Shown in pieces: positions 17,834 to 21,264 of a DNA stretch of 64,000 nt. A program made the translations under genes and the position numbers. This stretch comes from Clostridia bacterium (lineage in GTDB: Bacteria > Bacillota > Clostridia > Oscillospirales > CAG-272). Within the stretch, counting starts at the first letter, position 1, and each line of letters begins with the position of its first letter. The stretch is from the NCBI GenBank assembly GCA_017622085.1, contig JAGARU010000098.1, positions 62,001-126,000 on the forward strand, written 5' to 3'. The notes beneath the pieces are model-generated. The model was not told the origin of the DNA. It saw nothing but the letters and a program-made list of their open reading frames with translations, and ran no database searches.

Positions 17834-18670
17834 ATGATCATTACAGACAAAATCATACAGGACTACAGAGAGAATCTGATAAACGAAGAAAAGGCCGCCG
17901 CTACTGTAGAGCGTTATCTACGCGACGTAAAGGCCTTTGCCGCTTGGCTGGGTGATTGCCCCTTGCAGAAGGAGACCGCACTGGCATACAAGGCACATCT
18001 TTGCGAGACGTATGCACCGTCCTGCGTCAACACGGTGCTGTCCTCCTTGAACAGCTTTTTCTCGTTCCTCGGCCATCCGGAGCTTCGTGTTCGCTTTCTT
18101 CGGGTGCAAAAGAGCTTGTTTTCCTCGGATGAGAAAGAATTGACCCGCGGAGAATATGAGCGCCTTTTGGCGGCCGCCAAGGAGAAACACAATACCCGCC
18201 TGTACCTCTTGATGCAGACGATATGCTCCACAGGCATCCGTGTATCGGAGCTGAAGCATATTACCGTGGAGGCAGTGGGACGTACTTGCGCAGAAATTCA
18301 GTCCAAGGGCAAGCGAAGAACGGTTTATTTGCCCACCCGTCTTTGCCGTGCTCTGCGAGCATACGCGCGGGCGCAAAACATAAAAAGCGGCCCCGTTTTT
18401 GTCACCAAAAACGGGAACCCGCTGGATCGCTCCAATATATGGTCGGATATGAAACGACTATGCCGCACAGCCGGGATATCGGAGAAGAAGGTCTTTCCCC
18501 ACAACCTCCGCCACCTGTTTGCCCGAACCTATTACACTGCACAAAAGGACATCGTCCGTCTGGCGGACATTCTTGGGCATTCCAGCATCAATACTACCCG
18601 CATCTACACCATGGAAAGTGGCGAGATCCACCGCCGTCAAATTCAGCGCCTGGGGCTCTTAAAATGCTGA
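17834..18670 (+). CDS. Tyrosine site-specific recombinase (putative DNA invertase)
   Basis: A 278-residue recombinase of the lambda-integrase class with a short SAM-like core-binding domain (about 1-95) and a catalytic domain. All active-site residues are present: Arg136 in STGIRVSEL, Lys158 or Lys160 in SKGKR, His223 and Arg226 in HNLRH, His249 in LGHSS, and the nucleophile Tyr258 in TRIYT. Its size matches small invertases such as XerC/D-like promoter-switching enzymes rather than phage integrases with arm-binding domains. Its stop codon abuts a 22-bp near-palindrome that recurs in exact inverted form at 18891, so it is the prime candidate to invert the promoter between them. AAAGGAGAC precedes the ATG. 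I found no strong promoter of its own. Confidence 0.94.
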   Translation: MIITDKIIQDYRENLINEEKAAATVERYLRDVKAFAAWLGDCPLQKETALAYKAHLCETYAPSCVNTVLSSLNSFFSFLGHPELRVRFLRVQKSLFSSDEKELTRGEYERLLAAAKEKHNTRLYLLMQTICSTGIRVSELKHITVEAVGRTCAEIQSKGKRRTVYLPTRLCRALRAYARAQNIKSGPVFVTKNGNPLDRSNIWSDMKRLCRTAGISEKKVFPHNLRHLFARTYYTAQKDIVRLADILGHSSINTTRIYTMESGEIHRRQIQRLGLLKC

Positions 18671-18692
18671 CCACATAATTCGCATTATGTGG
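18671..18692 (+). repeat. Recombination site L of the invertible segment
   Basis: 9-bp arms CCACATAAT and ATTATGTGG flank an asymmetric core TCGC. The site starts on the base after the recombinase stop codon. Its exact reverse complement is at 18891-18912. Two inverted arms around a short asymmetric core is the layout of a tyrosine-recombinase crossover site. No T run follows, so it is not a terminator for the recombinase gene. Confidence 0.88.
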
Positions 18693-18721
18693 TAAAAGCC
18701 GCGTCTTTTACACCTGTAAAA
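18692..18721 (+). repeat. Two overlapping small palindromes beside site L
   Basis: GTAAAAG/CTTTTAC (18692-18711) and TTTTACA/TGTAAAA (18706-18721) share the middle segment, so only one can form at a time. They may be accessory protein-binding sites inside the invertible DNA. Function is unknown. Confidence 0.5.
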
Positions 18722-18890
18722 TACCTTGAAAAAACAAAAATGGTACATATTGGATACCCATGAAAAATATTCCTAACCGAGAGGAAAAAACGGGCAAAAA
18801 AATCCCTTTTAAAATCTTAAATCATTGCTTAATAAATTGACAAAATATATATAAGATGATAAAATTATTCCAGATAGACATTTTCAAAAA
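18693..18890 (+). other. Putative invertible promoter segment (198 bp)
   Basis: This DNA lies between two exactly inverted 22-bp sites and beside a complete tyrosine recombinase. It has no coding potential, is A+T rich, and contains one strong promoter that points right toward the collagen-like gene in the sequence given. After inversion the same promoter would point left into the recombinase 3' end, and the three scaffold genes would lose their start signal. Confidence 0.82.
18837..18865 (+). promoter_or_regulatory. Promoter inside the invertible segment (ON orientation)
   Basis: TTGACA (18837-18842), a 17-bp spacer and TAAAAT (18860-18865): a near-perfect sigma-A promoter. Expected transcription start is near 18872, so the mRNA leader includes site R, which can fold into a hairpin ahead of the GGAGG at 18927. 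Confidence 0.88.
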
Positions 18891-18912
18891 CCACATAATG
18901 CGAATTATGTGG
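18891..18912 (-). repeat. Recombination site R (inverted copy of site L)
   Basis: Arms CCACATAAT and ATTATGTGG around core GCGA, the reverse complement of the TCGC core of site L. It lies 27 bp before the start codon of the collagen-like lipoprotein gene. Confidence 0.88.
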
Positions 18913-18939
18913 TAAACAAACAATTTGGAGGAAAACATT

Positions 18940-21264
18940 ATGAACACAAAGACAAACAGAATGATGAAAGTCATCTCCATGCTGCTTACCGCAGCTATGG
19001 TGCTTTGTATGCTCGTAGGCTGTATGGAAGGTCCTCAGGGCGTTCCCGGTGCCAATGGCGCCGACGGCGCAGACGGTAAGTCCGCATACGAGCTGGCCGT
19101 AGAAAACGGCTACACCGGCACCTTGACCGAATGGCTTGACTCCCTCATGGGTGAGACCGGTGCTGCCGGCGCCAACGGCGCAGACGGTGCCAACGGCAAG
19201 TCCGCTTATGAGCTTGCAGTTGAGAAGGGCTATACCGGCACTCTCGACCAGTGGCTCGAGTCCCTCGTTGGTGCCGACGGTGCCAACGGCAAGGACGGTA
19301 AGGACGGCGCCAACGGTGCCGACGGTGCGGACGGTAAAGACGGTGTTAACGGCAAGTCTGCCTATGAGCTTGCAGTTGAAAACGGCTTTGACGGCACGGT
19401 AACCGAATGGCTCGCCTCTCTTGTAGTAGGCGTAGAAGGTATCCCCGGCAAGGACGGTACCAACGGTGTGGACGGTGAGTCTGCATACGAGCTGGCCGTA
19501 GAAAACGGCTTCGAAGGCACAGTAACCGAGTGGCTCGCATCCCTTGTAGGCCCCCAGGGCGAAAAGGGTGATAAGGGTGACAAGGGTGATAAGGGTGAAC
19601 AGGGTGACAGAGGTTACACCGGTTCCCGCGGACCTCAGGGTGAGGCCGGTATCACTCCCATGCTTCGTGCAAACGAGGATGGCACGGTTGAAGTTTCCTA
19701 CGACAACGGCTCTACTTGGGTATCCCTCGGTGTAGAAGGCATCAAGGGTGAGCAGGGTGATAAGGGTGACCAGGGTTACACTCCCCAGCTTAAGGTAGAA
19801 GATAACACTTGGATGGTATCCTACGACAACGGCGAAACTTGGGAATCCCTTGGCGTTCCCGCCACCGGCGACCAGGGCGAACAGGGTATCCAGGGTGAAG
19901 TTGGTCCTCAGGGTCCCCAGGGTGAAGTTGGTCCTCAGGGTCCTCAGGGTATCCAGGGTGAACAGGGTATCCAGGGTGAACAGGGTATTCAGGGTGAAAC
20001 CGGTCCCCAGGGTGAAACCGGTCCTCAGGGTCCTCAGGGTATTCAGGGTGAAGCAGGCTTCACTCCTTACATTGGCGACAACGGCAACTGGTTCTTGGGC
20101 GAAGAAGACCTTGGCGTTCAGGCTGAGGGCGTAACTCCTCTCTTCCGCGTAAATGGAGAAACCAGCCTTCTTGAAGTATCCTACGACGGCGGCCTTGAGT
20201 GGGAAACCCTCGACATCACCGGCGTTAAGGGTGACAAGGGTGAAACCGGTGCAACCGGTCCTCAGGGTGAAGTTGGTCCTCAGGGTCCTCAGGGTGTACC
20301 CGGTAAGGACGGTACCAACGGTTCTGTTGTAACCATTGGCGAAGACGGCTACTGGTACATCGACGGTCAGAAGACCGACGTGAAGGCAGTAGGTACCGAC
20401 GGTGCCGCTGGTGAAGCCGGTAAGGACGGTGCGAACGGCTCTGTTGTAACCATCGGTGAAGACGGTTACTGGTACATCGACGGTGAAAAGACTAACGTTA
20501 AGGCAGTAGGCGCTGACGGTGCCGCAGGTGAAGCTGGTAAGTCCGCTTACGAAATCGCAAAGGAAAACGGCTTCGAAGGAACCGAAGAAGAATGGCTTGA
20601 ATCCCTGAAGGGTGAAACCGGCGCCAAGGGTGAAACCGGCGAAAAGGGTGAAACCGGTGCCGACGGTGCTCCCGGCGCTAAGGGCGACAAGGGCGACAAG
20701 GGTGACAAGGGTGACACTGGTGCAACCGGTGAAACCGGTGCAGCCGGCCGAGGCATCAAGCGCATGTGGATCGATGAAAGTCTCCACCTGTGGGTAGAGT
20801 ACGACGACGGTAGCGCAGCAGTAGACCTTGGCTACATCGGCGTTGCTTCCGGCCCCGTAGTTCCCGAAGAACCCACCTACACCGAGCCCACCATTGTGGT
20901 TGACAAGGTAACTGCATCTGCCGGTGATGAGGTAGAAGTTTCAGTAACGCTCTATAACAATCCCGGAATGGCTGCAATCAAGTTTGCATTGACATGGGAT
21001 GATGCATTAACCTTAAAGAGCTATTCTTCTGGTGAAGCGATGCCCGCTTCCGGATTCCAGGCGCCCGGCAACAAAAACAGTGGCTGCAACTTTATGTGGA
21101 CTTCGAATGACAATTTCAACACTAATGGCGTAGCATTGACGCTTATATTTGAGGTTAATGAATCCGGACTGCATGAACTCGGTTTGGAAGTAAAAGAAGC
21201 ATTTAATGCAGATTATGATGATTTAGTAATAGATACGGTTTCCGGATCTATTACGGCTAACTGA
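18940..21264 (+). CDS. Collagen-like lipoprotein with C-terminal cohesin
   Basis: 774 residues. The ATG at 18940 is chosen because GGAGG precedes it. A lipoprotein signal ends in LVGC (Cys28), predicting a lipid anchor on the outer face of the membrane. Residues about 30-630 are blocks of Gly-X-Y triplets (GPQGPQG, GDKGDKGDKG, GIQGEQG), a collagen-like triple-helix stalk. They are interrupted by five copies of a (K/E)SAYE(L/I)A ... EWL-x-SL motif and by short beta units of the VSYDNGSTWVSLG and GEDGYWYIDG types. Residues about 651-774 form a cohesin domain (TIVVDKVTASAGDEVEVSV, NNPGMAAIKFALTW). The coding DNA turns clearly AT-richer from about 20930, at the cohesin. It is the first gene after the invertible promoter and would hold the scaffold to the cell. 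Confidence 0.92.
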   Translation: MNTKTNRMMKVISMLLTAAMVLCMLVGCMEGPQGVPGANGADGADGKSAYELAVENGYTGTLTEWLDSLMGETGAAGANGADGANGKSAYELAVEKGYTGTLDQWLESLVGADGANGKDGKDGANGADGADGKDGVNGKSAYELAVENGFDGTVTEWLASLVVGVEGIPGKDGTNGVDGESAYELAVENGFEGTVTEWLASLVGPQGEKGDKGDKGDKGEQGDRGYTGSRGPQGEAGITPMLRANEDGTVEVSYDNGSTWVSLGVEGIKGEQGDKGDQGYTPQLKVEDNTWMVSYDNGETWESLGVPATGDQGEQGIQGEVGPQGPQGEVGPQGPQGIQGEQGIQGEQGIQGETGPQGETGPQGPQGIQGEAGFTPYIGDNGNWFLGEEDLGVQAEGVTPLFRVNGETSLLEVSYDGGLEWETLDITGVKGDKGETGATGPQGEVGPQGPQGVPGKDGTNGSVVTIGEDGYWYIDGQKTDVKAVGTDGAAGEAGKDGANGSVVTIGEDGYWYIDGEKTNVKAVGADGAAGEAGKSAYEIAKENGFEGTEEEWLESLKGETGAKGETGEKGETGADGAPGAKGDKGDKGDKGDTGATGETGAAGRGIKRMWIDESLHLWVEYDDGSAAVDLGYIGVASGPVVPEEPTYTEPTIVVDKVTASAGDEVEVSVTLYNNPGMAAIKFALTWDDALTLKSYSSGEAMPASGFQAPGNKNSGCNFMWTSNDNFNTNGVALTLIFEVNESGLHELGLEVKEAFNADYDDLVIDTVSGSITAN
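19868..20060 (+). repeat. Short tandem repeats coding for Gly-X-Y triplets
   Basis: Near-identical 9-bp and 18-bp units of the CAGGGTGAA / CAGGGTATC type run in tandem. Shorter GGTGATAAG/GGTGACAAG runs lie at about 19565-19605 and 20685-20720. Unit counts are multiples of three bases, so copy-number changes would lengthen or shorten the stalk in frame. Confidence 0.75.

What the first reader, a model, noticed from the sequence alone, without database searches (positions are those of the whole stretch)
17834..18940. A recombinase-linked invertible promoter controlling a 30-kb surface-protein operon
Seen: a complete tyrosine recombinase ends on the base before a 22-bp site (arms CCACATAAT/ATTATGTGG, core TCGC). 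The exact reverse complement (core GCGA) lies at 18891-18912. The 198 bp between carry TTGACA-17-TAAAAT facing three giant surface-protein genes. Known: tyrosine recombinases in gut bacteria flip promoters between such inverted sites to give phase variation. Inferred: the cell switches the whole collagen/cohesin scaffold on or off, and this assembly captured the ON state. In the OFF state the promoter would read antisense into the recombinase gene, a possible feedback.
Basis: partly seen in the sequence, partly recalled or inferred. Interest (0 to 1): 0.93.

Follow-up and report, generated by a model that had tools for sequence, protein, structure and literature searches.

The report
Recombinase-flipped promoter for giant surface proteins
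A bacterium, likely from the gut, carries a recombinase gene directly beside two mirror-image DNA sites enclosing a predicted promoter, a likely flip switch that would turn a predicted 30-kb operon of giant surface proteins on or off; two pairs of closely related switches carry the same segment in opposite orientations.

Summary
The likely operon is three genes (18940-49048), closed by a strong hairpin. Comparison carries the case. Of 183 recombinase genes of this family with enough DNA downstream, 171 have such a pair near the stop codon (0 of 183 shuffles). The central 6 bp match between the two sites in 171 of 171, although 88 different cores occur; an arms-only search that ignores the core agrees (156 of 163 loci with two or more sites, plus 6 with an extra copy). 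A promoter points back at the recombinase in 112 of 169 segments and outward in 29, the window included. In two close pairs (flanks 96%/97% and 90%/67% identical) the segment matches only when inverted. Four relatives with a similar collagen-type gene, found through their sites, all are OFF. Flipping in this strain, promoter activity and the recombinase's action remain untested; the antisense-feedback idea got no support. Recombinase-linked invertible promoters are a known kind, and a 2025 study probably already sampled this family: new member of a known kind.

The parts
17834..18670 (+). tyrosine recombinase, 278 aa, predicted inverting enzyme
   Evidence: Pfam Phage_integrase 2.2e-29; R136, K158/K160, H223, R226, H249, Y258 invariant in 24 aligned sequences (catalytic roles recalled)
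18670..18693 (.). site 1, 24 bp, palindromic arms ACCACATAAT/ATTATGTGGT; central 6 bp at 18679-18684
18693..18890 (.). 198-bp predicted invertible segment between the two 22-bp sites
   Evidence: segments of related switches found inverted between close relatives
18837..18865 (+). sigma-70-type promoter TTGACA-17-TAAAAT with TG before the second hexamer, facing the operon (ON)
   Evidence: 141 of 169 segments examined (window included) have such a unit above threshold on one strand only
18890..18913 (.). site 2, exact reverse complement of site 1; central 6 bp at 18899-18904; would form a hairpin in the ON transcript leader
18926..18930 (+). ribosome-binding site GGAGG before ATG 18940
   Evidence: sequence
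18940..21264 (+). operon gene 1: lipoprotein-like start, collagen repeats and cohesin domain, 774 aa
21281..29530 (+). operon gene 2: signal-peptide-like start, cohesin, dockerin, leucine-rich repeats, 2749 aa
29561..49048 (+). operon gene 3: signal-peptide-like start, cohesin, dockerin, leucine-rich repeats, 6495 aa
49056..49087 (+). 14-bp hairpin with U-run, predicted end of the operon
   Evidence: fold -20.9 kcal/mol, z -6.6; the pattern scan lists no terminator here, probably because the stem takes up the T-run

Best explanation
The recombinase encoded at 17834-18670 is predicted to invert the 198-bp segment between two exact mirror-image 22-bp sites (18671-18692 and 18891-18912), which would point its likely promoter either at a predicted three-gene, 30.1-kb operon of giant surface proteins (ON, the orientation assembled here) or back at the recombinase gene (OFF). 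Shown here: the parts, the matching cores, the same arrangement in 171 of 183 family members examined, and opposite orientations of one segment in two pairs of close relatives. Inferred: the recombinase binds the conserved arms and exchanges strands within the central 6 bp, which must match; the asymmetric core makes the outcome inversion; the promoter is active; the hairpin at 49056-49087 ends the transcript; cells in a population therefore differ in whether they display the collagen/cohesin/dockerin/LRR scaffold.
For: Parts and uniqueness. Conservation: 171 of 183 recombinase genes with at least 450 bp downstream have an inverted pair beginning within 320 bp of the stop (median 16 bp); 0 of 183 dinucleotide shuffles and 1 of the 89 upstream regions long enough to test do. 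Core matching: central 6 bp identical in 171 of 171 pairs, 88 distinct 4-nt cores, while the arms differ somewhere in 124 of 171, mostly at the two outermost positions on each side. Arms-only search, free of the seed bias of the first: of 163 loci with two or more sites, 156 have an exactly inverted core, 6 show an extra direct copy, 1 is a chance match; unrelated loci match in 0.8%. Promoter: 112 OFF, 29 ON, 2 both, 26 none of 169 (threshold: 95th percentile of one shuffle per segment); spacer 17 in 109 of 112 and 27 of 29; distance to the nearer site median 35 (OFF) and 36 (ON). Inversion: L043/L305 flanks 96% and 97%, segment 53% direct, 84% inverted; L275/L279 flanks 90% and 67%, segment 54% direct, 92% inverted. 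Operon: gaps of 16 and 30 bp, no promoter- or terminator-like site on the + strand around either gap, hairpin after gene 3.
Against: No reads were available, so both orientations were not seen in this strain. 12 of 183 family members lack the pair and 26 of 169 segments show no promoter above threshold. The window segment also holds a weaker promoter-like match on the other strand (9 of 12). The window against homologous OFF switches favours inversion only weakly (L088: 56% inverted, z 4.5, 52% direct; L245: 53% inverted, z 3.6, 52% direct, z 2.0), and two others (L280, L274) show no preference. Promoters inside the long genes were not scanned for.
Confidence: 0.9

Rival explanations
1. The inversion controls the operon by a terminator or leader RNA rather than by promoter orientation, as published for cwpV of C. 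difficile, where the promoter lies outside the inverted segment.
For: 34 of 112 OFF segments and 3 of 29 ON segments carry a terminator-like hairpin on the operon strand, so some members may combine both. Site 2 forms a hairpin in the window's ON leader.
Against: The window segment has no terminator-like site on either strand, and it holds a near-consensus promoter 25 bp inside site 2. In cwpV the promoter is upstream of the switch (PMC2784873, passages).
Confidence: 0.06
2. The two sites are static regulatory palindromes, such as an operator for recombinase autoregulation, and do not recombine.
For: Each site is palindromic and next to the recombinase gene, as an operator might be.
Against: A static operator does not explain matching, variable cores or homologous segments that lie in opposite orientations between similar flanks.
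Confidence: 0.02
3. A real switch once, now a locked remnant in this genome.
For: Only one orientation is available here.
Against: Intact recombinase frame with all catalytic positions, 24-bp repeats without a mismatch, intact promoter. In the family the arms of a pair differ somewhere in 124 of 171 loci, so the window's pair is among the cleaner ones.
Confidence: 0.05

Closest known systems
Inverton group 139 with invertase group 35 (PMC11892184, 2025; section 8 and passages seen)
   Same: 33 invertons, 32 from class Clostridia, most strongly linked to a nearby tyrosine-type recombinase; orientation changes in sequencing data for Clostridium sp. D5 (26-bp repeats, 205 bp between, from the coordinates printed) and Intestinimonas butyriciproducens.
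   Different: Its repeat motif is in a supplement that could not be read, so identity with this family is an inference. The passages seen do not describe core matching, an OFF bias or this operon.
E. coli fim switch with FimB/FimE
   Same: Recombinases in the vicinity of an invertible promoter that turns a surface structure on or off (as described in PMC2784873, passages; that they are tyrosine recombinases is recalled).
   Different: Two recombinases instead of one; the window protein scores far below the curated cut-offs of NCBI's two tyrosine-type DNA invertase models (36.9 against 221 and 21.7 against 222 bits).
C. difficile RecV and the cwpV switch (PMC2784873, PMC5903667; passages)
   Same: Clostridial tyrosine recombinase inverting a 195-bp segment between 21-bp repeats before a large surface protein.
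   Different: RecV is not near cwpV and serves several switches; the cwpV promoter is outside the segment. Sequence relation to RecV was not tested.
XerC/XerD/XerA
   Same: Closest solved structures and best-scoring curated models.
   Different: 142.8 bits against a cut-off of 220 for XerA and 122.1 against 329.6 for XerD.

Membership tests
Recombinase-linked invertible promoter (inverton) | inverted recombinase sites flanking a short segment | tested here: met
   24-bp exact pair, 198 bp between; only such pair in the window
Recombinase-linked invertible promoter (inverton) | promoter inside the segment, facing the target gene in one orientation | tested here: met
   by consensus only; activity not testable
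Recombinase-linked invertible promoter (inverton) | both orientations occur | tested here: inconclusive
   seen between close relatives; no reads for this strain
Recombinase-linked invertible promoter (inverton) | the recombinase catalyses the inversion | not testable with these tools
   adjacency in 171 of 183 loci is suggestive
Tyrosine recombinase | Phage_integrase domain and R-K-H-R-H-Y residues | tested here: met
   (residue roles recalled)
XerC/XerD/XerA equivalogs | curated NCBIfam score cut-off | tested here: not met
Tyrosine-type DNA invertases (NF007370, NF007371) | curated NCBIfam score cut-off | tested here: not met
cwpV/RecV-type switch | promoter outside the inverted segment, recombinase remote | tested here: not met
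   promoter-like site inside, recombinase adjacent; definition from PMC2784873 passages
Inverton group 139 / invertase group 35 | shared repeat motif | not testable with these tools
   motif is in the paper's supplement; ACATAA does not occur in the main text

The most novel reading that the evidence does not exclude
This is a portable one-gene switch cassette of gut Clostridia: recombinase, sites and promoter form a unit of about 1.1 kb that has come to stand in front of dozens of unrelated genes (giant adhesins and scaffolds, TetR-like regulators, helicases, a TIR-domain defence-type effector, a c-di-GMP enzyme). Its 6-bp crossover address drifts freely but stays matched within each locus, and its resting state is OFF for surface proteins, so the window shows a rare ON state of a 30-kb cohesin-dockerin scaffold.
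Probability: 0.65. Interest if true: 0.68.

Novelty: new member of a known kind. Interest (0 to 1): 0.55.

Why it matters
It would make all-or-none display of a very large collagen/cohesin/dockerin surface assembly a heritable coin-flip in what the relatives' record titles suggest is a herbivore-gut Clostridia lineage, and it gives a simple sequence rule (recombinase stop codon, then ACATAAT-N4-ATTATGT pairs with matching cores and a TTGACA-17-TATAAT promoter) by which the state of such switches can be read from assemblies. The family is common: 103 of 395 sampled genomes of the window's family, and 55 of the 171 better ones, encode the recombinase at E 1e-60 or better. The excess of OFF states in the largest target cluster, mostly signal-bearing proteins (37 OFF:2 ON, against 75:27 for all other segments with a call; Fisher P = 0.005), is a testable statement about cost or selection.

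Tried and rejected
Antisense feedback on the recombinase: tested by gap length and by antisense terminators, no significant effect. Private crossover addresses: cores differ in 54 of 56 within-genome pairs (29 pairs less one counted twice, plus 28 pairs of the eight switches of G422), but pairs of loci at large match in only 1.1%, so this shows drift, not selection; the window and its own second copy are one of the two exceptions. Same-strain flip: not found (details in the Against line). Viral carriage: two exact-site scans of viral contigs gave 2 and 5 stretches, a scan with the alignment gave 42 loci, 16 of them at 45% identity or more, and a scan with one viral recombinase gave 4. Phage records: best hit 44%. 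Terminator after gene 3: not listed by the pattern scan, found by folding. Signal-like starts: 86 of 165 first genes, but 67 of 137 next ORFs too, so no enrichment is claimed. A first count on 83 loci (61 OFF, 12 ON, 10 ambiguous) was superseded. Contig breaks: counted by hand, 11 of 80 contigs end within 400 bp after the recombinase match and 2 of 80 begin within 400 bp before it (binomial P = 0.02); repeats could also cause this. The protein search scored only the 7999 candidates sharing most words; its best hits are 70% identical. Dropped before the counts: 15 identical recombinases, 31 of 214 genes without a stop or with under 450 bp downstream, hits under 40% identity or under 60 aligned residues, 2 of 171 segments outside 60-450 bp, and segments over 420 bp; loci L188-L221 were not used in the counts and L322-L378 were looked at only (some of them without a pair). 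Ten paper searches listed no paper on this operon's switching; that covers only the open-licence library, and of the papers listed I looked into four (PMC11892184, PMC2784873, PMC5903667, and PMC10939037, where none of my terms occurred).
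Full report
Observation. The finding's features are all in the sequence at the stated places. The recombinase runs from 17834 to 18670; the first site starts on the next base, and the exact reverse complement of that site lies 198 bp further on. The repeat is in fact 24 bp. It is the only exact inverted pair of 20 nt or more within 1 kb in the window. The promoter TTGACA-17-TAAAAT with a TG before the second hexamer lies at 18837-18865 and faces the operon; a weaker match (9 of 12) lies on the other strand.

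Operon. Three genes follow on the same strand with gaps of 16 and 30 bp: a lipoprotein-like collagen/cohesin protein, then proteins of 2749 and 6495 aa, each with a cohesin, a dockerin and many BspA-type leucine-rich repeats. No + strand promoter- or terminator-like site was found around the gaps. A 14-bp hairpin with a U-run follows gene 3 (-20.9 kcal/mol, z -6.6), and a promoter-like site lies behind it. A 30.1-kb transcription unit is therefore likely; it was not measured.

Family. The recombinase belongs to a subfamily for which no curated NCBIfam cut-off is reached (four members tested); 24 aligned sequences share the residues known from memory as catalytic. Of 395 sampled genomes of the window's family, 103 encode it at E 1e-60 or better. 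Of these 183, 171 have an inverted pair near the recombinase stop; shuffled sequence gives 0 of 183 and the upstream side 1 of 89.

Core matching. Across 171 pairs the arms follow ACATAAT...ATTATGT, while the central four positions carry nearly maximal variation (88 different cores). Yet the central six bases are identical between the two sites of a locus in 171 of 171, whereas the arms show mismatches in 124 of 171, mostly at the two outermost positions on each side. Because that search used exact seeds that can favour matching cores, I repeated it with arms only: 163 of 183 loci have two or more such sites (20 have one or none), and the best two have an exactly inverted core in 156; six of the other seven have an additional directly repeated copy and one is a chance match; different loci match in 0.8%. 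This is what strand exchange within a 6-bp overlap would demand. The mechanism is inferred from the pattern.

Orientation. Scored against shuffled segments, 143 of 169 segments hold a promoter above threshold: on the strand facing the recombinase only in 112, on the outward strand only in 29 (window included), on both in 2. Spacing and distance to the nearer site are the same in both groups, as expected for one unit seen from two sides. Homologous switches caught in opposite states align inverted: L043 against L305 (flanks 96% and 97%; segment 53% direct, 84% inverted) and L275 against L279 (90% and 67%; 54% direct, 92% inverted). Of 47 pairs with homologous downstream genes and opposite calls, 43 align better inverted, 3 tie and 1 aligns better directly (counted; the pairs are not independent, and the promoter itself contributes to the score).

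Relatives of the window's operon. Four loci (L245, L088, L280, L274) have the downstream proteins most similar to the window's collagen-type protein; all have both sites with matching cores and all are OFF, as are L085 and L095, whose site 1 is identical to the window's. In L088 and L245 a further downstream stretch resembles the N-terminal cohesin/dockerin part of genes 2 and 3. These loci were found through their sites, so they do not test how often sites are lost.

Targets. First genes downstream fall into 75 similarity clusters among 165, 63 of them singletons. Fifty downstream proteins, from 50 of the 83 loci, were scanned with Pfam: by my reading 25 carry surface- or secretion-type domains (collagen, LRR, SLH, dockerin, Flg_new, Glug and the like) and 9 have no match at E 1e-4; others include ResIII-type helicases (L043, L086), a CAP12/Pycsar-type TIR protein (L100), a TetR_N protein (L090) and an EAL/GGDEF protein (L125). 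The largest cluster, 50 proteins of which 45 have signal-like starts and to which the window's protein is linked, is 37 OFF to 2 ON (11 without a one-sided call); all other segments are 75 to 27 (P = 0.005). Whether this reflects cost, selection or clade history is open; the recombinase clade of the window is itself more OFF-biased (55:5 against 57:24).

What is known. Invertible promoters beside tyrosine recombinases are well known (recalled, and as described in the papers' passages). The 2025 study PMC11892184 (section 8 and passages seen) reports inverton group 139, almost all Clostridia, tied to a tyrosine-type recombinase group, with orientation changes over culture passages. Geometry and taxonomy fit this family; the motif is in a supplement I could not read. 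I therefore rate the find as a new member of a known kind, with a strong comparative case and an unusually large predicted target.

Noticed in passing
G000:C33:11281-12090 (L048): Second recombinase of the same subfamily (49% identity) in the same genome bin, with its own switch, the same central core TCGC as the window and also ON; it faces a 523-aa signal-bearing protein without a Pfam match. The bin is rated 7.8% contaminated, so this contig may belong to another organism.
   Followed up: partly
window 13125-17682 and 50609-54709: The operon lies inside a glycan-degradation neighbourhood: GH42, GH43, GH2 and an arabinofuranosidase C-terminal domain.
   Followed up: no
window 49100-50643: LiaF-like and DUF4097 pair directly behind the operon terminator, with its own promoter-like site.
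   Followed up: no
L363-L370 (one genome, eight switches): Eight copies of the switch in one Clostridium transplantifaecale genome, with eight different cores.
   Followed up: yes
L183 and L185, just after the recombinase stop: Distant viral-contig recombinases (31% identity) also have an ACATAAT...ATTATGT palindrome directly downstream, with different cores in two 98% identical genes; no inverted partner within 1 kb.
   Followed up: no
L233, L266, L284, L294, L296, L297: Six loci carry an additional directly repeated copy of a site, which could allow deletion as well as inversion.
   Followed up: no
L100:6266-7810: A CAP12/Pycsar-type TIR protein sits behind one of these switches, a possible phase-variable defence gene.
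   Followed up: no
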